From IMG/VR virus record IMGVR_UViG_3300048597_000118, positions 1-64,000 of that record: a DNA stretch of 64,000 nucleotides; one strand, written 5' to 3'. Source of the stretch: a virus. The position numbers and the translations under genes were made by a program. The notes beneath the pieces are model-generated. The model worked only from the letters and a program-made list of their open reading frames with translations, had not been told where the DNA came from and ran no database searches. Shown here piece after piece: positions 14,666-54,802 of this stretch. Every line of letters starts with the position of its first letter. Within the stretch, counting starts at the first letter, position 1.

Positions 14666-17600
14666 TTAGAAACCAAAGCCGCCGTCATCAAAGTCATCGG
14701 TGAAGCTTTGCCCCTTAGTTCTAGCTTGTCTTACTAATGAACGTCGCTGGGAATCAGAGCCCCAGTCGCGCACTTTATTCCTCATAACCGACGGTCTACC
14801 TACCATCTTAGGCAGTGCTTTAGTAGTCATAGGAACCCCAGCTATTTCCCAGGCTACTGAACATACTGAGTCAATTAGGTCTTTAGAGTTATGTACTATA
14901 ACCCCAGCAGCCAACGCAAAGTTATCCCACTCATCTACTTCTAAGTCATATACGTCTACAGGTTCTAGAAGAGTGACTTTTATAATTTCGCGAACCTTAT
15001 GGTTTTCGCCCAGCCCACCCTTGACAAAATCATTCCAAGTCTCATAACCATTTCTCTTAAGAATGATTCTTAGAGTGGATACAGAACACTGCAGCTCTGC
15101 GGCAACATCCTTCATCATAGAGAGCCCAGACTGTACTGCGCCGTGTATATCTTGGATACTTACCTTAGGCGACCTGGTTCTATCAGAATCAACCATAATA
15201 ACTTTTCCTTTAAAGGAAAAAGTGCCTGCTTTAGTGTCTTTTCTGTCTATGTATTTATTTTCAAACTCCTGCCAATCAGAAAAGCCCTCGTCTCTTAAGA
15301 CTCGAGTGATAGTATTTCTGGACTCATCTAAAAAGATAGCAGCTTGGTATGCATTAGACGCACCATGCTCTAACGAACGTAGTAGAGAGTCTAAAGTAAC
15401 ATTTGCTCTGAAGAAACTAGCTTTCCTGTTCCTCTCCACATAGAACTCTTTAGGCTGGCTCTTCATATACGCTGACCTTTTTGCTCTCGTCTCAGGACGC
15501 TTATTAAATTCGATAGTCCCTTCAGAGAGCTTTTTACGGAACTCTAAGTCATTATTATGTGCGAGAGTGGAGTGATATGAGCAGTGTTCACTATGGTCTA
15601 ACACCTCTAGGTTTTCGGGTCTGTTGTCTGTTTTAATATGGTTAATATGATGGACAATTTTACCTCCTTTTAAATCTGGGTAGTTTAAGGACATATGGTG
15701 AGTTAAGTATCTGCCTTGTATAGAAGATACCTTTTCATATCCTCCCTGAACTGGCCATTGAAAGTTTATAGGCATCAACCGTGTAAACCCAGGCACTATA
15801 TCCTCAGCTTTTATATAATCTCCATTTCGTAACATAAATGGGTGCTCAGGGGTACATCTGATTACAGCTCCACTATCTAGAACTACATCAAGTAACTCAG
15901 TCACTTGTTTAGTCTTTCTGCCTCGCGCTTTGCCAGGCACAATTGTACCATCAGGTTTGGCCGAATACACCCATACCTCTTTGCCCTCTAGCTCAGAAAT
16001 CATAGGTCTAGTTCCGTCCAATAAAGGTATTCGAGTTTCCCCTACAAAACAACCATCTGGTGGGTGCATAATCTTACCGCGTTCTGTGTCATGGATGATG
16101 CCCATCATTTCTGACTTCAATAACGCTGTCCAATAGGAGTCTTTAGGTAATATCAGCCGACCTTCGTGGACTAATTTCCTTGTAAAGTCATATATTTCTA
16201 CTTGGACTCTATTACTCCAGAAACGGCTACTAGCGTTAATGCCAAGCAACCTTAACCGTTGAATAGTTTCATGTTGTTGAGCGTGGTCAGTAGTCAACTT
16301 ATATATAGGTCTAGAGGCGTGAATGGTGGTGATGATGTCATAGACATTAAGGATACTAACTACAGAACCTCCTTCTGGTTCCCAAGCGGCTAATCCATCA
16401 ATAACTACTACGTCTTGGTCATCGCGTCGCTCACCGTGACCAAATGCCATAGCATAGGCATCTTTGACGAATGCCGGGTCTAAGTGCATGTAAGTGTGAT
16501 GGCTATAATTCTTTTCTAGACTGTGTAGTTGTAACCTGACCATTTTGTCAGGCATTAACTGCATAGGCTCTAACTTGATTACTGACCGTCCTGTAGTTGC
16601 TTCTAACACCTCAGTTTCACTGAAGTAGGTAAAGGCTGAAGTGGTGCGGTCCCCTTCAAATTCAAGACGGGCTGAGGCAGGGTTGAGGGTGTACTCAGAG
16701 GCGACGATAGGATTGTTGCGGTTCATTAAAGGATTCAAATCCCAAGTGCGGAATCTGAAGCCAATCCAAGAGTCTTCTGCCATAGCAGCAGTGTATAACC
16801 TCTGTATGGCATCTCCATCACGCCAGGCACTACTAATAGCCACGCGGCGGGCATGTTCTCCAAAAGTAATACCAGATACACCGATGTTAGACCAGAGTTC
16901 TAGTGCGTTAGATTTACCGTCTTTATTTTCAAAACGGGCGACTTCATCCATGACTAAAAGTATTACCCTAGACCCTACTTGACTAGAGCCTTTAGAGTTA
17001 CCTGCGTATATGTAGAGTAGTTTGTCGTGATATTTAATCTCTTCTTCACCGATAATTATGCTTTTGTTATCTATAAGACGTTTTACTTTAGGGATATAGT
17101 TAAGGAATGCCCGCGCTTGACCAAAGATAGTCTTTTTTACCTGACTGGCTGCTGGAGCCAAGCAATATATACTAATAAGAGTTGAGCTGGCTACACCGAA
17201 GAATTGTTGGGGATTCGGCAGCATACATAGCTTATACCACTCATAACCTATAATGATTGCCCCTAGGAAGGTATTGTGATTGGTCATACCCTGAGCTACG
17301 TACTGCTGATGTCCTGGAACCCAAAGGTCCACACAGAATGCGGTCGACTCCTCTACAGAAACTACAGGAGTATAAAAATAATCACAGTCTAGTAAGTGTT
17401 GAAAGTGCTTTACAGCTTCTTGGTCAGAACTATACTGCTCTACCAGAGGCAAAAATCTCTCAACTCGCTTAGAGCTTAGCTTTTCCCCAGTAGATTTTTT
17501 GATGGCATTGCCAACTATAGCCCTATATTCAGAGCGGACATTAGGTGGGTCTCCTGGTTTTTTATCAAAATACTGCCCAGTATTGTCTGGTAGAGAACCC

Positions 17601-19066
17601 CTTAATCTTTGTAGCCAGTGTATCTGATAGGGAATAGCATTTACTTCACTAGAAGACTTAGAACTGCTAGAACTAAAATAATTAGCTATTCTGGTAGCGC
17701 GCCGCTGTACTCTCAGCCCGGCTTCTTCCATAAAGATTCTTAAGCTATCCTTACCAATGATGGTTAACTGATAATAATCCTCTTTATTAACAGTAGAAGT
17801 AGTTATAGAAGACACCACCCCAAAGTTAAGTAAAATTAACTGGGTCTCTCTAATGAGGTCTAAAGAGGCTGAACTCAAGCTTAAGTTATGCCCTCTCTTA
17901 TCAACAAATCCATCACCGTCGAACAATCCTGATAGATAAGCTGCTTGCACGCTTTTAGGTGAGCTACGTATAACCCATGGTGTCAGCTTAGTTTTCGGTT
18001 TAGCCTGCAATGAGTAGCCCAGATAGTCTAAGAAATCTCTGACCTCTACACCATAATAAGTTAGAGCCCTCCCAAAGGTAGAACGTTTATCAACACTATA
18101 TGTTGGAGATAATCCACAATCTGTAAATGCCTTGGTAGCGTTCTCCACATCCTCTTCGTGGCAGGATATCTGTAGCCTATTAGGCTGCGTCCATAACCCA
18201 TCAGCTACTAGCAGTCCTATTAGATATCCCCAAGCTTCGTTTATTACAGGTGGCGGTGTAAAAGACTTCTGATTGTTTGTAGCTTGATGTCTTTCTTTAG
18301 GAGTCCACCCATTAGGGATTACATACTCTGTAGGGAACAAGTTAGTGTTCTTATGGATAGCTATGTAGTCACCGACCTCAATATCGCTAAAGTACTTCCA
18401 AGCAATCACCCCGTCTTGAGTAAGAACTTTTACTCTGTGCTCCGGTGTGCCTTCTATGTTATAACCGGCCTTAGTAGTGATCTTTTTAGTCTTGCTTAAT
18501 CCTTTAACAAAAAAACGTCCTGTGTTAGCTCGTTTAGATTTGCCTTCTAACGCTACTCCTTTGATATACTCAAAGTCTTTACCTACAATACCCAGTTGCT
18601 GCGCTATGCTCTGTGCTTCCTGTGCAGTCTGAGTTATAGTAAATAGCTGGCTACCTAAAACTTCGTTAAGTATCTCGTAGCCTCGCTTAATTCCATCGGA
18701 CAGAATAAAAGTAGTGCGAAAATCGGAACACTTTGAACCGTTGCGGCCACATTCCAAGACAAAAGACTGACGTTTTTTAGGCCCTACATCTAAATCATAA
18801 GTAGTCCTGCCTAGCGCCTTCCAAGCTTGCATTAGAGCTATCTCGTTATCCTCTAAAGGCATCCCATCATAAGCTTTTAGTAAAGTTAGCTGCCTTTCAT
18901 TTAAAGCGCCGCCGGGACCCAACCACGCTTCTATATCTACCTCTGTCTCTAAAAACTCAATGATGTTACTAGCTCTGTAGTTAGCAGAAAACTCCTGACT
19001 TAAATCCTCTAAAAAGTCACCAAAGAAGTCGTCTGTTAAACTATCAAAGCCTTTTACACTAGCCAT
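14666..19066 (-). CDS. terL: Terminase large subunit interrupted by two inteins
   Basis: The 1,466-residue precursor should splice to a 592-residue packaging ATPase/nuclease, a normal TerL size. The extein segments are 1-112, 599-1005 and 1394-1466. After splicing, GRNGSK (107-112) joins T599 to form Walker A. Walker B is LLVMDE (D707, E708). The RNase-H-like nuclease Asp residues are D863 (HLDPAF), D927 (TTDH) and D1396 or D1399 (SKDLIDS). Intein 1 splits the P-loop between K and T. Intein 2 sits directly before SKDLID. The ATG overlaps the upstream gene's stop (TGATG), which suggests translational coupling. TerL translocates DNA into the prohead through the portal and cuts the concatemer. 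Both insertions are in-frame, with canonical Cys first and His-Asn last residues. Confidence 0.95.
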   Translation of the reverse strand: MASVKGFDSLTDDFFGDFLEDLSQEFSANYRASNIIEFLETEVDIEAWLGPGGALNERQLTLLKAYDGMPLEDNEIALMQAWKALGRTTYDLDVGPKKRQSFVLECGRNGSKCSDFRTTFILSDGIKRGYEILNEVLGSQLFTITQTAQEAQSIAQQLGIVGKDFEYIKGVALEGKSKRANTGRFFVKGLSKTKKITTKAGYNIEGTPEHRVKVLTQDGVIAWKYFSDIEVGDYIAIHKNTNLFPTEYVIPNGWTPKERHQATNNQKSFTPPPVINEAWGYLIGLLVADGLWTQPNRLQISCHEEDVENATKAFTDCGLSPTYSVDKRSTFGRALTYYGVEVRDFLDYLGYSLQAKPKTKLTPWVIRSSPKSVQAAYLSGLFDGDGFVDKRGHNLSLSSASLDLIRETQLILLNFGVVSSITTSTVNKEDYYQLTIIGKDSLRIFMEEAGLRVQRRATRIANYFSSSSSKSSSEVNAIPYQIHWLQRLRGSLPDNTGQYFDKKPGDPPNVRSEYRAIVGNAIKKSTGEKLSSKRVERFLPLVEQYSSDQEAVKHFQHLLDCDYFYTPVVSVEESTAFCVDLWVPGHQQYVAQGMTNHNTFLGAIIIGYEWYKLCMLPNPQQFFGVASSTLISIYCLAPAASQVKKTIFGQARAFLNYIPKVKRLIDNKSIIIGEEEIKYHDKLLYIYAGNSKGSSQVGSRVILLVMDEVARFENKDGKSNALELWSNIGVSGITFGEHARRVAISSAWRDGDAIQRLYTAAMAEDSWIGFRFRTWDLNPLMNRNNPIVASEYTLNPASARLEFEGDRTTSAFTYFSETEVLEATTGRSVIKLEPMQLMPDKMVRLQLHSLEKNYSHHTYMHLDPAFVKDAYAMAFGHGERRDDQDVVVIDGLAAWEPEGGSVVSILNVYDIITTIHASRPIYKLTTDHAQQHETIQRLRLLGINASSRFWSNRVQVEIYDFTRKLVHEGRLILPKDSYWTALLKSEMMGIIHDTERGKIMHPPDGCFVGETRIPLLDGTRPMISELEGKEVWVYSAKPDGTIVPGKARGRKTKQVTELLDVVLDSGAVIRCTPEHPFMLRNGDYIKAEDIVPGFTRLMPINFQWPVQGGYEKVSSIQGRYLTHHMSLNYPDLKGGKIVHHINHIKTDNRPENLEVLDHSEHCSYHSTLAHNNDLEFRKKLSEGTIEFNKRPETRAKRSAYMKSQPKEFYVERNRKASFFRANVTLDSLLRSLEHGASNAYQAAIFLDESRNTITRVLRDEGFSDWQEFENKYIDRKDTKAGTFSFKGKVIMVDSDRTRSPKVSIQDIHGAVQSGLSMMKDVAAELQCSVSTLRIILKRNGYETWNDFVKGGLGENHKVREIIKVTLLEPVDVYDLEVDEWDNFALAAGVIVHNSKDLIDSVCSVAWEIAGVPMTTKALPKMVGRPSVMRNKVRDWGSDSQRRSLVRQARTKGQSFTDDFDDGGFGF
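14888..16051 (-). other. Intein 2 of TerL, with HNH endonuclease (388 aa)
   Basis: This covers residues 1006-1393 of the precursor. It starts CFVGET (C1006) with a regular block A and ends VIVHN1393, with S1394 as the +1 nucleophile. Block B is CTPEHPF (T1072, H1075). Instead of LAGLIDADG it holds an HNH nuclease centred on VHHINH...DNRPENLE (H1139, H1140, N1148, N1152). Two helix-turn-helix-like DNA-binding repeats follow, around the NTITRVL and SVSTLRII segments. Splicing restores HPPDG-SKDLIDS, the third acidic motif of the nuclease. Confidence 0.9.
17273..18730 (-). other. Intein 1 of TerL, with LAGLIDADG endonuclease (486 aa)
   Basis: This covers residues 113-598 of the TerL precursor. 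It starts with C113 and ends ...TNHN598, with T599 as the +1 nucleophile. A block-B TPEHR motif (T207, H210) is present. The central part has two dodecapeptides, GYLIGLLVADG (acidic D289) and AYLSGLFDGDG (D383/D385), the signature of a DOD homing endonuclease. The block-A region after C113 (CSDFRTTFILSDG) is atypical, and about 90 residues lie between it and block B. Excision would regenerate Walker A exactly, so an unspliced precursor should lack ATPase activity. Confidence 0.9.
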
Positions 19067-23200: not shown

Positions 23201-23665
23201 TTATTTATACCTCAAACTAATATGGACAGGATTAACAACCGCAGTGGTGTTGTTGTCTGCTAATCCTGCAGTAGCAGCTATAGTCAAACCTGTAGTAAAT
23301 ACTTCGTGAGGCACACCAGAGGGTTCCATATAAAATGCACCAGGCACCACAGTGTTGCCCGGCGGAACCATTAATGTCAGCTTAGGAAGCGTAGTGCCGA
23401 CTACTACGTTGACGGCCAGTGCATCATAGAACTTGATATAAGAGCAAGTCGTATTTGGGTTGATAATATTCCAAGCAAACAGTTCTGTGGCTCCGGCTTT
23501 AATTTGTGCCGGTGTAGCAGTCAAGTTAGTCTGACGAGCACTTAATATGCCCGGGAACTCCTGTTGGAAGACAGACACATACGGGTCTTCTTCTACACCA
23601 GTGCCTTGGGCTTTAAGATAGACAAGGCTTACATTATCAACGTCTATAGCCTTTATGTTAGCCAC
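23201..23665 (-). CDS. Fibre/baseplate-associated protein, unknown (154 aa)
   Basis: This is a 154-residue beta-rich protein. The pattern AWNIINPNTTCSYIKFYDA...VPPGNTV resembles small jelly-roll-like tail proteins that cap fibres or attach them, but no family is certain. It lies 5 bp upstream of the fibre gene and abuts the 83-residue gene before it, so it is translated as part of the fibre cassette. Confidence 0.75.
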   Translation of the reverse strand: MANIKAIDVDNVSLVYLKAQGTGVEEDPYVSVFQQEFPGILSARQTNLTATPAQIKAGATELFAWNIINPNTTCSYIKFYDALAVNVVVGTTLPKLTLMVPPGNTVVPGAFYMEPSGVPHEVFTTGLTIAATAGLADNNTTAVVNPVHISLRYK

Positions 23666-50608: not shown

Positions 50609-51238
50609 ATGGAAAGTAACAATCCTACGTACCTATTAGCCACTTTAGACCAACTACGCTCATATCTAACAATTACAGAGTCCTCTTTCAGTGAAGGAGC
50701 TTTCAACTGCTCTCTAATAACCCGCAACACTAAAGTAGCACCTCTTAAATTTCAAGCCCTTGAATTAGCGAAGAAATTAACCTATGAGTGGGACCAACTA
50801 AAGACTAGAGTCAACGTATATCAAACATTAACCGACTTACCGGAGTCAAAAGACTTGGCTAGTGCCGCCTGCTTTTATTACTGCCACAGTCTTATCCTTG
50901 ACTCTGTGGGTTGGGCTAATTTTGTCTCAGGAAAGCTACGGTACCGCATATATGGTACCCCTTATATGCGAGAAGAATCAGAATTGTTAGACCGTAAAAC
51001 CGTAGTAGGTGCAGCAGCAATATTATACGGGCTGTCCATAAATGAATATATAGGCTCCCACTACACAGTCAAAACACCAGAGGGGAAAGAACACTTCCTT
51101 CGTGGGGCAGAAAATCATTGCTCTTGTAGTAGATACTCAATAGGACCCAATGGATTCTGCGAGCATTCTGCTTTAGGTAAAGTCTATTGTGATAATAGAG
51201 CTTTGCTGGTTAATACTGGTTTAGCCTCCTTCTTTTAG
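50609..51238 (+). CDS. SWIM zinc-finger-like protein on the opposite strand (209 aa)
   Basis: This is the only plus-strand gene inside the minus-strand head module. Residues 171-186 are C-x-C-x10-C-x-H (C171, C173, C184, H186), the SWIM signature, which binds nucleic acid or protein. The rest is helical (TKVAPLKFQALELAKKL, KDLASAACFYYCHSLILD). It overlaps the 3' end of the portal gene by 18 bp, tail to tail. ATG 50609 follows a short gap shared with a divergent neighbour. It may be an early-expressed regulator, since it is transcribed independently of the late operon (inference). Confidence 0.72.
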   Translation: MESNNPTYLLATLDQLRSYLTITESSFSEGAFNCSLITRNTKVAPLKFQALELAKKLTYEWDQLKTRVNVYQTLTDLPESKDLASAACFYYCHSLILDSVGWANFVSGKLRYRIYGTPYMREESELLDRKTVVGAAAILYGLSINEYIGSHYTVKTPEGKEHFLRGAENHCSCSRYSIGPNGFCEHSALGKVYCDNRALLVNTGLASFF

Positions 51239-52708
51239 GTTCTTTTTGGGGTTGCCGGCGGCCGGCTTAGCTGGCTGTCGGTCTTGTTGTTGAGGCTTGA
51301 CATTACCAGTAGGTCTACCAGGCTCTGCTTTCTTAACCGCTTCACCTGTGGGCTTTTGTAGTGGCTCAATTAATATCTGTTTAATGAACTTAACGTCAGC
51401 AGAAGTTTGTTCACGCTCGCTAAGACCAGCCATTTGACGCACCATGGCCCAGTCCATACTATCCAATGGGTTAAGATAAGCCTTCTCAGTTAGACCAGTT
51501 ACTACTTGCATAGTAGCTACCCGGTCTTCAGGTCGGTCACTATATTGATTAGCAAAAGTAGGCGGTATCTTAGCCGAAGCCCTATTAAAATTCCATTGCT
51601 GTACAGTCATTAGACACTTCTGTACAACATGGTTGATTAAAGCCCGCCGCTCATTATAAATGGTCTTAAAGTAAACCTCCATACGACGCTCACGAGCAGC
51701 CTCTAAGGAGTTAGTGTCCATAATCAGAAAGTATGGCACTATATGCCGGATAGACTCAGCATCTACAAACCGGAGGGTGTTTAGAAACACATCACCAAAG
51801 TTGTCACTAGAAGGAATAGAACCAATTTCCGGCTTAAAGTCGTTACCAGCCTGAAGTTGCGGCAGTAGTATATGCCGTAAGTCTTCTTGGTTAATTTCTA
51901 GCTGCTCTTGGATATACTCCAGAGTAGTCTTTGGTCTTTCATTACCAGTGGCTGGGTCTAATATCATCTCATCTCCTAAAGAAGTAGAGGGAGACCTAAT
52001 CCAGGTAACACGTTTCCCTACGTCATTCATAGCGCTGACCATCATTTCGACCAGCACCTCTTTTAACCGGAACCACTTATACGAGGGCGCCACTAAAGAA
52101 TGACCATAGTAATTCCCATACTCAGAGTTAGACGCCAGATAGATATGCTTCCACATCTGTAATTGACGTTCACCCCTAGGGTCTAAAGTATGATGTTGGA
52201 AGATGCCAGACTTATGACCGCTTAACGTCTTAGAGCCTTCAGTTAAGAGCCCATCTTTATCCGGGTAAATAGTAATAGTGGTTGGATGATAAGTTAAAAC
52301 ATCTTTTAAGGTGAGCGCCCCAAAGGTTAAGTTATAGCAAACCTCAGATACAGAGAAGCCCGCCCAGTCCTTAGTAAACTGTATTTCCCGTAAAACTTGT
52401 TCCCATGCTTTTCCAGAGTGGTCTTCTAAGGCTAATAGACTATTACGGTGGAACTCTTGAATTTCTTCATCTGGATGAACTGGAAGCCCAATAGACCCAA
52501 CAATAGAGTTAACTCTTGTCTGTTCTGCTGAGTGAATGGTTAAGTCTTGTCGCACCATCTTTTCATAGGTACGGAGCTTAGCTTGTAGCGGTCGGTTTAA
52601 TAATAGTTGGTTAAACTGGCCTTGTTGTTGTAGTTTGTACCGTGCGCTGCGTCTATCTGCGTAGCGTATATCACCGGCCGGGAACGGATTAGTAGGTTGA
52701 GTAGGCAC
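51221..52708 (-). CDS. Portal protein, Mu gp29/DUF935-like (495 aa)
   Basis: The portal forms the dodecameric ring for DNA entry. The protein matches the Mu-like portal family: KAWEQVLREIQFTKDWAGFSVSEVCYNL, a helix pair at RLKEVLVEMMVSAMNDVGKRV, and ESIRHIVPYFLIMDTNSLEAARERRMEVY. It starts with GTG (52708), since no ATG fits in frame nearby. A Pro/Lys tail follows residue 460. It overlaps the plus-strand SWIM gene at its 3' end. It is the first gene of the late minus operon. A hairpin (52757-52790) lies upstream. Confidence 0.85.
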   Translation of the reverse strand: MPTQPTNPFPAGDIRYADRRSARYKLQQQGQFNQLLLNRPLQAKLRTYEKMVRQDLTIHSAEQTRVNSIVGSIGLPVHPDEEIQEFHRNSLLALEDHSGKAWEQVLREIQFTKDWAGFSVSEVCYNLTFGALTLKDVLTYHPTTITIYPDKDGLLTEGSKTLSGHKSGIFQHHTLDPRGERQLQMWKHIYLASNSEYGNYYGHSLVAPSYKWFRLKEVLVEMMVSAMNDVGKRVTWIRSPSTSLGDEMILDPATGNERPKTTLEYIQEQLEINQEDLRHILLPQLQAGNDFKPEIGSIPSSDNFGDVFLNTLRFVDAESIRHIVPYFLIMDTNSLEAARERRMEVYFKTIYNERRALINHVVQKCLMTVQQWNFNRASAKIPPTFANQYSDRPEDRVATMQVVTGLTEKAYLNPLDSMDWAMVRQMAGLSEREQTSADVKFIKQILIEPLQKPTGEAVKKAEPGRPTGNVKPQQQDRQPAKPAAGNPKKNLKEGG

Positions 52709-52756
52709 AAGAATAGGAGTTTGTTTACTAAGCTCTACTGTTAATATTAGTTTATT

Positions 52757-52790
52757 GGCTAGCCCAGACTAACGATAAGCTGGGCTAACC
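52757..52790. repeat. Inverted repeat upstream of the portal gene
   Basis: Two 11-nt arms (GGCTAGCCCAG and CTGGGCTAACC, one mismatch) flank a 12-nt loop. There is no U-run on either side, so it is not a strong terminator. It may bind a regulator or end transcripts coming from the IS-like element. Confidence 0.5.
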
Positions 52791-52854
52791 TATAAATAGT
52801 AGTACCGAGTCTGTTAAGCTCCTTGCTAAGGACCACTTAACTTGACATCCTCCA

Positions 52855-52870
52855 CTTCCCTAAAGGGAAG
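52855..52870. repeat. Right-end hairpin of the IS605-like element
   Basis: CTTCCC-TAAA-GGGAAG pairs perfectly, 14 bp inside the inferred boundary. This matches the position and form of recognition hairpins at ends of IS605-family elements. Confidence 0.65.
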
Positions 52871-52876
52871 GGATTC

Positions 52877-52993
52877 CTACGAAGCAAACAGATTTAACTG
52901 AATAGCTTTTCGGTGGGTTGACGCTTCACAGGATGCCGCTACCGAAGTAGTCTTACGCTTTCCTCCACGTCCGTTTTCAGTCTCCGAACGTCC
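52877..52993 (-). pseudogene. tnpB: TnpB C-terminal remnant
   Basis: The minus-strand frame ending TAG at 52877 reads RSETENGRGGKRKT...CEAST...IQLNLFAS. This is the tail commonly seen in cyanobacterial IS605-type TnpB, after the RuvC-like domain. Only about 39 residues remain, so no nuclease activity can come from it. The HNH gene's stop codon lies directly before the remnant. In intact elements this 3' part also encodes the start of the omega RNA scaffold. Confidence 0.75.
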
Positions 52994-53553
52994 TATGAAC
53001 TTACAGATACAATATTTGACCCCTGACATCGACTTTTGTGGCGGGACCAACCGTTAATTGTACTCAAAGGAATATCTAAATTTCTTGATATATCACTTTG
53101 CGTAACGCCTTCGTTTAAGAGACTTAACACAGTAGTGATGGTGGAGTCTCTATATTTACATTTACCGTGTTTTTCCCCCGTTACATATTTAGCTCGACCA
53201 TTCTTTAACTTATGGTCTGTGTTTGCTTGGGGCGTTACCCATTCCAGGTTAGAGACGCAGTTGTTTAATGGGTTTGAGTCTATATGATTCACCTGTAAAT
53301 TAGAGCTTATCGGTCTGCCGATAAACGTTGTGGCTACTAGCGTATGGACACATATATGCTTTTTGACAGCATTCTTACTTAAAGCTACGCAAGGATAACC
53401 TTTTCTAAGAGTAGGACTTAACTTTTTGCGTGGAGCATGTCTGTAAGAGCCTCCTTTAGCCTTAACCATCTTGTCCGTAGCGTAAATTGACCCATCAGAC
53501 CCGCACTCATAGAGTCCCTCATAACCTGCTATCGGTCTAAATTCTATTTCCAT
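52993..53553 (-). CDS. HNH homing endonuclease with NUMOD4 and helix-turn-helix parts (186 aa)
   Basis: The protein has a NUMOD4-like N-terminus (residues 1-60: FRPIAGYEGLYECGSDGSIYA). An HNH_3 nuclease follows (CVHTLVATTF ... VNHIDSNPLNN ... NLEWVTPQ, with H70, H90 and N98 as likely catalytic residues). A C-terminal HTH (about 135-172, with GVTQSDISRNLDIPLSTIN) likely binds DNA. This is a typical free-standing phage homing endonuclease, intact in length. It lies within the IS605-like shell in the position of tnpB. It might drive spread of the region by cutting genomes lacking it. Confidence 0.88.
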   Translation of the reverse strand: MEIEFRPIAGYEGLYECGSDGSIYATDKMVKAKGGSYRHAPRKKLSPTLRKGYPCVALSKNAVKKHICVHTLVATTFIGRPISSNLQVNHIDSNPLNNCVSNLEWVTPQANTDHKLKNGRAKYVTGEKHGKCKYRDSTITTVLSLLNEGVTQSDISRNLDIPLSTINGWSRHKSRCQGSNIVSVSS

Positions 53554-53613
53554 AATTAATAGTTTAAGTCGTGATTATGTTATTATAACAATCTGTACGT
53601 ACATTGGCTACCC

Positions 53614-53751
53614 ATGGCAAAAGAAAGATTAAACCTGCGAATAGAAGTAGGGCGTTTAGATAAGTTAAGGAAGCTTGCGTCTAAGAAGAAAAAGACAATG
53701 ACACAGATAATAGAAGATTGGCTTGATACTCTTGATATAGATAAAGATTGA
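53614..53751 (+). CDS. Small ribbon-helix-helix protein (45 aa)
   Basis: ATG 53614 to TGA 53751 encodes MAKERLNLRIEVGRLDKLRK...MTQIIEDWLDTL. This has the strand (RLNLRIE) plus two-helix pattern of RHH/CopG-type DNA-binding proteins, with a Lys-rich linker. It is divergent from the HNH gene, with 60 bp between, so it may autoregulate that promoter. Its last codons overlap the TnpA remnant in another frame, suggesting that the 3' end was created by a deletion junction. Similar small RHH ORFs occur next to IS605 genes in my recollection, so it could be an original element gene. Confidence 0.65.
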   Translation: MAKERLNLRIEVGRLDKLRKLASKKKKTMTQIIEDWLDTLDIDKD

Positions 53752-53950
53752 GTTTCCGCCCAAGTTGTCTGTATCGCAAATAGTAAATGCCCTCAAGGGT
53801 GTCTCTAGTCGTCGCTATGGACAAGCTAATTTACCAAAGCCATACGGTAAGGATGCCCTCTGGAGTCCGTCTTATTTTGCTTCTAGTGTTGGCGGCGCAC
53901 CCATTAAAACCATTAGACTGTACATAGAAAACCAATTAAAGCCGTCCTAA
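53744..53950 (+). pseudogene. tnpA: TnpA (IS200-type Y1 transposase) C-terminal remnant
   Basis: The plus-strand frame reads KIEFPPKLSVSQIVNALKG, SSRRYGQANLPK, LWSPSYFASSVGG and IRLYIENQ. This is the C-terminal half of Y1 HUH transposases including the tyrosine of the YIENQ helix. The first half with the HUH motif is absent, so no transposase is made. TTG 53765 could start a 61-residue fragment. The end hairpin overlaps its stop codon, as in intact elements. Confidence 0.85.
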
Positions 53951-53957
53951 AGGACGG
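53942..53957. repeat. Left-end hairpin of the IS605-like element
   Basis: CCGTCC-TAAA-GGACGG pairs perfectly next to the TnpA stop codon, 20 bp inside the inferred boundary (about 53977). It has the same TAAA loop as the opposite end's hairpin, as expected if both are bound by the same transposase. Confidence 0.7.
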
Positions 53958-53998
53958 GGTTTTAAACCCATTCTTTTGATAATTAGGATTTCTCCTCA

Positions 53999-54802
53999 AT
54001 GAATCGTCTACCAGAAACTATCACTATCAGCCGTGAAGACCTTCCCTCCGGCGAGTATGATGTGATCCTTAAATGCCCGTACTTTGGAGATTGGCGTAAA
54101 GCTCGTAAACTTTACCCCAACGATATGGACTCCCAAGGTCGTCGCAAAAGCCCTGGTTATGCCGCCGAAGAACTCCTGCTCTGTCAGCAGATTGTTGATG
54201 TTGTAGACAAAGATAATCGCTCTGCTATGGGTCGCCGCCCTAAAGATGTTATTGACCGTCTTAAGTTATTCACTATCCCAGACCGTCAAGCTCTTCTAAC
54301 CATCTTTTTGGAATTGTTCTGGGTAGGTGCAGACCAGGCTAAACAAGCCCGCGATTTAGCCAATGAATTCATGGTGACTGCTGCTCTTACTTACACTATC
54401 GAAGCAGATAAAATGCCCATGGCTGGGGTCAGCGTTACCTATAATGCTGTTAACACTGGTACTCAAATGGCGGCAGACCGCCGTTATATCGGAGTGCAAG
54501 AACAAGGTTGCACCCTAGAAGAACTTCTATTTGCTACTTGTGTGGCAGCAGTAGATGGTGACCCAGTAGAGCAACCTAAAGACAGTATCAGTCTGTTAGA
54601 TGAATGGACTATCTCTGATGTTCAGTTTGCTAAGTTGGTCTTTGTTAACCAATTTACTTTAGATGAAGCCGGAGAAGACCGGGCAAAGGAAGCGGGAAAG
54701 CGCTACTTGGAAAAACTTGGTTTGAGCAAGCTCGCTTCAACGCCCGCACCCAAACCCAAGCAAACCTCCAAGCCGCCGGCCAACAATGTTCAAGAATTGT
54801 AA
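53999..54802 (+). CDS. Tail assembly chaperone, G-type (267 aa)
   Basis: First gene of the plus-strand tail operon. The 267-residue soluble protein contains DRLKLFTIPDRQALLTIFLELFWV near residue 90. Chaperones of this position bind the tape measure and tube subunits during tail assembly. The main evidence is the lambda-type slippery heptamer near its 3' end and an open -1 frame for 191 further codons, followed by a giant ORF. The zero-frame tail (residues 235-267) is Pro/Lys-rich and looks unstructured. The start is only about 20 bp from the IS605-like element, so any native promoter lies beyond or inside the element (a GATAAT at 53978-53983 is a weak candidate). Confidence 0.75.
   Translation: MNRLPETITISREDLPSGEYDVILKCPYFGDWRKARKLYPNDMDSQGRRKSPGYAAEELLLCQQIVDVVDKDNRSAMGRRPKDVIDRLKLFTIPDRQALLTIFLELFWVGADQAKQARDLANEFMVTAALTYTIEADKMPMAGVSVTYNAVNTGTQMAADRRYIGVQEQGCTLEELLFATCVAAVDGDPVEQPKDSISLLDEWTISDVQFAKLVFVNQFTLDEAGEDRAKEAGKRYLEKLGLSKLASTPAPKPKQTSKPPANNVQEL

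What the first reader, a model, noticed from the sequence alone, without database searches (positions are those of the whole stretch)
52841..53977. IS605 shell with tnpA/tnpB interior swapped for an HNH endonuclease and an RHH gene
Both transposon ends with matching TAAA-loop hairpins and both transposase 3' tails survive, while everything between was replaced by a homing endonuclease and a small DNA-binding gene. The endonuclease occupies the position of TnpB, itself a homing-like RNA-guided nuclease. The result is a hybrid: a potential Y1-mobilisable cassette with a protein-guided nuclease.
Basis: partly seen in the sequence, partly recalled or inferred. Interest (0 to 1): 0.8.

Follow-up and report, generated by a model that had tools for sequence, protein, structure and literature searches.

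The report
Jumping-gene shell carrying a swapped nuclease
In a cyanobacterial virus, both ends of a small jumping gene (an IS605-type insertion sequence) survive exactly, but the gene for its RNA-guided DNA cutter (TnpB) has been replaced by a protein-guided DNA cutter (an HNH homing endonuclease), next to a small regulator gene that elsewhere travels with TnpB.

Summary
Window 52842-53978 (1,137 bp) is an IS200/IS605-family element of the divergent tnpB/tnpA type. A related phage contig, L094, carries the matching empty site (CCTAATTAT|GTTAA), so the element inserted cleanly 3' of TTAT without duplication. Both end hairpins remain, with the tnpB 3' tail (about 38 codons) and the tnpA 3' tail (67 codons, HUH motif lost). 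The closest intact relative, L088, has 1,342 bp of tnpB/tnpA where the window has 759 bp: an intact I-HmuI-like NUMOD4-HNH gene and a 45-aa ribbon-helix-helix (RHH) gene.

(1) The RHH is not arbitrary: in cyanobacteria its homologues mostly sit divergent to tnpB, often end in the same LE hairpin, and DNA homology runs into the intergenic promoter. The HNH start lies 60 nt from the RHH start; tnpB starts lie mostly 34-66 nt away. So HNH occupies the tnpB slot. (2) The TnpB guide-RNA (omega-RNA) scaffold is still present, with all 14 covariation-supported pairs.

The element is non-autonomous. I found no second copy, so mobilisation, RHH control and HNH homing remain inferred. New variant of a known kind.

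The parts
52842..53978 (.). Whole chimeric IS605-type element, 1,137 bp. Read on the minus strand it runs LE to RE; target 5'-TTAT is at 53979-53982.
   Evidence: Empty site in L094, CCTAATTAT|GTTAATTGG, against window CCTAATTAT[CAAAAG...GATGTCAA]GTTAAGTGG.
52842..52876 (-). Right end (RE) with hairpin CTTCCC-TTTA-GGGAAG (minus strand) and terminal GATGTCAA; any guide would read on into 52841 and leftward.
   Evidence: the same terminal GATGTCAA in L023, L026, L088 and L173.
52877..52996 (-). Remnant tnpB 3' end (about 38 codons, open frame ...NGRGGKRKTTSVAASCEASTHRKAIQLNLFAS*) overlapping the omega-RNA scaffold.
   Evidence: 77% nt identity to L088 and 78% to L173 over 153-159 nt including RE; alignment.
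52919..52976 (-). Omega-RNA (TnpB guide-RNA) core: three helices, e.g. hairpin CUAC-UUCG-GUAG. All 14 pairs kept in the window copy.
   Evidence: Covariation over 22 sequences: 96.1% of cells paired, 8 pairs with changes on both sides, 49 such cells against 15.7 +/- 3.6 in shuffles, 0/500 shuffles reach the score.
52993..53553 (-). HNH homing endonuclease gene, 186 aa: NUMOD4 (5-59), HNH_3 (69-111), C-terminal helix-turn-helix-like part (143-172).
   Evidence: Pfam, PHROG 59 E=5e-39, I-HmuI 1U3E E=2e-9.
53554..53613 (.). 60-nt divergent promoter/operator region between HNH and RHH. The part from 53580 is homologous to the RHH-tnpB intergenic region of L143 and L144; a degenerate copy of a conserved 17-mer (consensus GGGTAGCCATTGGGTAG) lies 19 nt upstream of the RHH start.
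   Evidence: blastn E=5e-8 (L143) and 2e-7 (L144) from 53580; motif score p about 0.008-0.02 against random phage 60-mers.
53614..53751 (+). RHH (Arc/CopG-like) gene, 45 aa, homologue of the TnpB-companion RHH.
   Evidence: Homologues in 40 of 386 cyanobacterial genomes, neighbours; two predicted helices in RHH layout, Foldseek top hits Arc and CopG (E about 1, so fold-level only).
53747..53950 (+). Remnant tnpA 3' end (67 codons plus stop). HUH (HIH) motif absent; YIENQ helix with the presumed catalytic Tyr kept.
   Evidence: Y1_Tnp and transpos_IS200 matches; 82% nt identity to L088; dN/dS 0.06 against L088.
53940..53978 (-). Left end (LE) with hairpin CCGTCC-TTTA-GGACGG and terminus 5'-CAAAAGAATGGGTTT (minus strand).
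   Evidence: Shared with L007, L088, Microcystis phage Mic1; the hairpin family occurs in 24 of 386 cyanobacterial genomes.

Best explanation
This is a non-autonomous IS605-type transposable element that was inserted into the cyanophage genome by a Y1 transposase (TnpA) at TTAT. In it, the tnpB coding region, from its start codon to about codon 355, has been swapped for a free-standing HNH homing endonuclease gene. The HNH gene now uses the divergent promoter/operator that an RHH protein shares with tnpB in related elements. The RHH protein most likely represses that divergent promoter, as Arc/CopG-type proteins do. The HNH enzyme most likely does TnpB's job by other means: it cuts phage genomes lacking the element, so that repair or recombination copies the cassette in. 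The element can move only if a related TnpA acts in trans on the preserved ends, and a TnpB in trans could still load the retained omega-RNA scaffold. Shown: ends, empty site, target, gene contents, junctions, RHH-tnpB kinship, intergenic homology, omega-RNA pairing. Inferred: mobilisation in trans, repression by RHH, where HNH cuts, use of the omega-RNA.
For: Clean empty site in L094. Intact divergent relatives with the same ends, L088 closest. RHH homologues are multi-copy; 21 of 30 loci inspected have TnpB adjacent by tblastn, and L142-L144 and L171 carry a more distant TnpB-like ORF (Pfam OrfB_IS605 tested for L142). Several RHH genes end in the same LE hairpin family (L148-L152, L154, L172-L174). 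Window DNA homology to L143/L144 extends into the intergenic region, and the HNH-RHH spacing (60 nt) fits the tnpB-RHH spacing. HNH is intact and I-HmuI-like. Omega-RNA pairs are kept. The tnpA tail shows dN/dS 0.06 against L088 and no stop or frameshift, so loss of tnpA is recent relative to the split from L088. Elements without transposase genes but with such ends occur in cyanophages (L007, Mic1) and cyanobacteria, so trans-mobilisation in this family is plausible.
Against: Only one copy of the hybrid is known, so there is no direct evidence that it moves as a unit. The HNH target site is unknown. The insertion itself has the signature of TnpA, not of HNH homing. The RHH operator match is weak. 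On the window branch the tnpA tail has 8 nonsynonymous to 9 synonymous changes against 2 to 9 on the L088 branch, consistent with loss of constraint (small numbers).
Confidence: 0.45

Rival explanations
1. Passive wreck: an ordinary IS605 element inserted, decayed by internal deletion, and a selfish HNH gene (with or without RHH) landed in the safe, non-essential space. The ends are bystanders and nothing moves as a unit.
For: Unique arrangement. Internally emptied shells are common here: 14 of 29 elements with both ends hold no matching gene. Core-deleted divergent IS605 remnants keeping only the two C-terminal tails are described in Haloquadratum (PMC3119063). The phage is rich in homing elements (intein and LAGLIDADG/HNH domains inside one large ORF).
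Against: The HNH start sits at the tnpB start position relative to RHH, the stop codons lie at the joints, and the RHH is of the TnpB-companion kind; chance landing does not predict these. All omega-RNA pairs and both ends are intact.
Confidence: 0.35
2. RHH-HNH was already an independent two-gene homing module that recombined into an IS605 shell as one piece.
For: The two genes are adjacent, divergent and fill the whole gap between the tails.
Against: None of 11 HNH relatives in 386 cyanobacterial genomes has the RHH nearby. None of the RHH homologues inspected has an HNH partner; the usual partner is TnpB.
Confidence: 0.15
3. Metagenome assembly chimera of an IS605 element and an HNH gene.
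For: The window is an IMG/VR virus record; reads cannot be inspected here.
Against: Clean empty-site match on both flanks, open frames throughout, both joints inside one 1.1-kb stretch, and no other copy of the HNH in the collection to recombine with.
Confidence: 0.05

Closest known systems
IS200/IS605-family divergent tnpA/tnpB element, cyanobacterial type (closest: L088, IMGVR_UViG_3300032092_004214)
   Same: Both ends, hairpins, TTAT target, tnpB 3' tail with omega-RNA, tnpA 3' tail (77-82% nt identity).
   Different: tnpB body and tnpA HUH half absent; HNH and RHH genes instead.
RHH-TnpB elements (tnpA-less, IS1341-like) of cyanobacteria and their viruses (L142-L153, L172-L174)
   Same: Homologous RHH, divergent promoter region, spacing, and in several the same LE hairpin family.
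   Different: HNH in place of TnpB; a tnpA tail still present after the RHH gene.
Palindrome-associated transposable elements and core-deleted IS605 elements (Haloquadratum, PMC3119063)
   Same: Shell with both ends and, in some, only the two C-terminal tails of divergent tnpA/tnpB.
   Different: Those are non-coding; here two open genes fill the core.
IStrons (group I intron plus IS605/IS607; PMC4227781)
   Same: Chimera of an IS with an unrelated type of mobile element.
   Different: The partner is a ribozyme, not an endonuclease, and an IS with transposase genes remains.
I-HmuI-like NUMOD4-HNH phage homing endonucleases (1U3E)
   Same: Domain layout and sequence over residues 4-135.
   Different: Lies inside an IS605 shell next to an RHH gene, not in an intron or free intergenic space.

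Membership tests
IS200/IS605 insertion sequence | Subterminal hairpins at both ends matching family elements | tested here: met
IS200/IS605 insertion sequence | Insertion 3' of a short fixed target, without target duplication | tested here: met
   Empty site in L094, TTAT target; TTAT also borders LE in the aligned relatives L088, L090 and L091.
IS200/IS605 insertion sequence | Encodes a functional Y1 (HUH) transposase TnpA | tested here: not met
   Only profile positions 57-121 remain; HUH lost; no other TnpA in the record. So it is a non-autonomous derivative.
IS200/IS605 insertion sequence | Mobilised by TnpA (in cis or trans) | not testable with these tools
   No second copy found; needs an excision assay.
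TnpB / OMEGA system | TnpB with RuvC and zinc-finger domains | tested here: not met
   Only about the last 38 codons remain.
TnpB / OMEGA system | omega-RNA scaffold at the RE, next to target-derived guide sequence | tested here: met
   14 of 14 pairs kept; expression not tested.
HNH homing endonuclease (I-HmuI-like) | NUMOD4 plus HNH_3 with intact motif | tested here: met
HNH homing endonuclease (I-HmuI-like) | Cleaves and homes into the element-free allele | not testable with these tools
   Biochemistry needed.
RHH (Arc/CopG) regulator | RHH fold | tested here: inconclusive
   Window Pfam hit below cut-off; homologues hit DUF6364 or RHH_1 at or just below cut-off; predicted fold most like Arc/CopG but E about 1.
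RHH-TnpB module | RHH homologous to the TnpB companion, with a shared divergent promoter region | tested here: met
RHH-TnpB module | Divergent partner gene is TnpB | tested here: not met
   The partner is HNH.

The most novel reading that the evidence does not exclude
A working mobile element in which a protein-guided homing endonuclease has taken over the retention/gene-drive role of the RNA-guided nuclease TnpB, in the same regulatory slot (RHH-controlled divergent promoter) and between transposase-recognisable ends, while the omega-RNA stays available for TnpB in trans.
Probability: 0.25. Interest if true: 0.85.

Novelty: new variant of a known kind. Interest (0 to 1): 0.58.

Why it matters
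TnpB is often compared to a homing endonuclease that keeps its transposon in place; here an actual homing endonuclease stands in TnpB's slot. If functional, it makes that equivalence directly testable in one element. The recurrent RHH-TnpB pairing in cyanobacteria and their viruses, which my literature searches did not find described, suggests a dedicated regulator of TnpB.

Tried and rejected
HNH peptide scan of viral contigs: no relative. HNH in phage and plasmid records: many distant I-HmuI-like genes; the features listed under the best hits show no IS605 link, but their neighbourhoods were not opened. RHH in phage and plasmid records: none. RE pattern in viral contigs: none. Omega-RNA pattern in viral contigs: two near-identical TnpB-less shells, L183/L184. 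Omega-RNA pattern in 386 genomes: mostly TnpB or TnpA/TnpB neighbours, no HNH. Rfam: no family for this RNA; a sub-threshold rhtB match at 52740-52807 (27.5 bits, gathering 55) lies at a plain inverted repeat in the flank. Considered and dropped: HNH as part of an IscB/IsrB-type RNA-guided nuclease; it is a NUMOD4-HNH protein without a RuvC domain hit.

Full report
What is there. The window is part of a 101,169-base IMG/VR virus record. Between a minus-strand Mu-type portal gene (51221-52708) and a plus-strand 267-aa gene (53999-54802) lies a 1,137-bp insertion, 52842-53978. The related contig L094 (80% nt identity on the portal side, 73% on the other) has the same two genes without the insertion. 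Its intergenic sequence reads, on the minus strand, CCTAATTAT|GTTAATTGG, where the window reads CCTAATTAT[element]GTTAAGTGG. This is a clean IS200/IS605-style insertion 3' of TTAT, without target duplication.

The shell. On the minus strand the element starts CAAAAGAATGGGTTTAAAACCCCGTCC-TTTA-GGACGG (LE) and ends CTTCCC-TTTA-GGGAAGTGGAGGATGTCAA (RE). Next to LE are 67 codons of tnpA 3' end (Y1_Tnp and transpos_IS200); next to RE are about 38 codons of tnpB 3' end. Intact divergent tnpB/tnpA elements with such ends were recovered from cyanobacterial genomes and viral contigs. The closest is L088: 77% identity over the tnpB tail plus RE and 82% over the tnpA tail plus LE. In L088 the two conserved blocks are 1,342 bp apart; in the window about 759 bp.

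The joints. Homology to tnpA begins at ATTGAG, directly 3' of the HIH motif in L088, so the catalytic histidines are gone. Homology to tnpB ends at about 52996. The RHH stop codon (TGA) falls in the first joint and the HNH stop codon (TAG) in the second. The tnpA tail has no stop or frameshift, and dN/dS against L088 is 0.06. Polarised changes are 9 synonymous and 8 nonsynonymous on the window branch against 9 and 2 on the L088 branch, which fits recent loss of function but rests on small numbers.

The HNH gene. It has NUMOD4 and HNH_3 domains above Pfam cut-offs, belongs with PHROG 59 (HNH endonuclease), and aligns over residues 4-135 with I-HmuI (1U3E). It is open, 186 aa, and has a C-terminal helix-turn-helix-like stretch. 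Eleven relatives in 386 cyanobacterial genomes have no TnpA, TnpB or RHH match nearby.

The RHH gene is a TnpB companion. Its homologues occur in 40 of 386 cyanobacterial genomes, up to 18 copies per genome. Of 30 loci inspected, one per genome, 21 have TnpB adjacent by tblastn. L142-L144 and L171 have a more distant TnpB-like ORF (Pfam OrfB_IS605, 64.6 bits, tested for L142). Viral contigs L172-L174 show the same pair. In L148-L152, L154 and L172-L174 the RHH gene ends in the same LE hairpin family as the window. A separate viral contig, L095, has a distantly similar RHH gene between tnpB and the same LE. Window DNA homology to L143 and L144 runs from 53580, 34 nt upstream of the RHH start, to 53729/53738 (E=5e-8 and 2e-7). 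A 17-nt motif (consensus GGGTAGCCATTGGGTAG) lies about 20 nt upstream of most RHH genes; the window has a degenerate copy at the same place. TnpB-RHH start spacing is mostly 34-66 nt where the detected start is ATG; HNH-RHH spacing is 60 nt. So HNH stands where TnpB stands in these elements.

The omega-RNA. The tnpB 3' end overlaps a structured RNA. In 22 aligned copies a three-helix core forms 96.1% standard pairs; 49 cells are changed on both sides against 15.7 +/- 3.6 in shuffles, and sliding the partners destroys it. The window copy keeps all 14 pairs (read from the alignment). Calling it the TnpB guide RNA is inference from position and from established knowledge of TnpB omega-RNAs; Rfam has no model that matches.

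Rarity. In a census of 29 elements with both ends among the fetched loci, 14 held no matching gene, 9 tnpA plus tnpB, 3 tnpB, 2 tnpB plus RHH, and 1 (the window) HNH plus RHH. The census is limited by its end patterns. No second hybrid was found in viral contigs, phage or plasmid records.

How it most likely works. The element was placed by a TnpA. It is now non-autonomous but has both ends. The HNH gene uses the promoter region that tnpB used, probably under RHH repression, and probably favours the cassette by cutting element-free phage DNA. These functional steps are inferred. The main rival is a passive wreck in which a selfish HNH gene settled; the tnpB-slot position and the intact omega-RNA argue against it but do not exclude it.

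Known relatives. Core-deleted divergent IS605 remnants with only the two C-terminal tails are described in Haloquadratum (PMC3119063); IStrons are chimeras of a group I intron with an IS (PMC4227781); TnpB has been likened to homing endonucleases and reported to drive IS spread in plasmids (PMC11870625). Searches for TnpB with ribbon-helix-helix or CopG, and for HNH homing endonucleases with IS605, found no description of either the RHH-TnpB pair or this chimera; only titles and abstracts of most hits were seen, and the library lacks most subscription papers.

Noticed in passing
L142-L171, L172-L174: Small RHH gene (45-68 aa) divergently paired with tnpB, multi-copy in many cyanobacteria (up to 18 copies per genome), with a conserved 17-nt motif upstream; apparently undescribed TnpB companion.
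   Followed up: partly
L095:9399-9545: A different RHH gene (RHH_1/NikA-like) occupies the tnpA position next to a distant tnpB and ends inside the same LE hairpin.
   Followed up: partly
window 14666-19066 (-): 1,466-aa ORF with two intein-like insertions, one with LAGLIDADG and one with an HNH_3 domain (probable large terminase; that assignment was not tested).
   Followed up: partly
L005:2765-3050 (Microcystis phage Mic1, record about 23340-23630); L007:789-1150: Gene-less mini-elements with this LE hairpin in cyanophages; in Mic1 it sits just upstream of Mic1_19, whose protein resembles that of the neighbouring Mic1_18.
   Followed up: partly
L183:7600-7730, L184: Viral contigs carrying a TnpB-less omega-RNA plus RE (solo guide-RNA remnant).
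   Followed up: no
L176:3001-3464: RHH homologue in a phage followed directly by an unrelated 107-aa ORF, without TnpB: possible domesticated copy.
   Followed up: no
window 52751-52796: 17-bp inverted repeat upstream of the portal gene start, just outside the element; L094 has a different short inverted repeat in the same interval.
   Followed up: no
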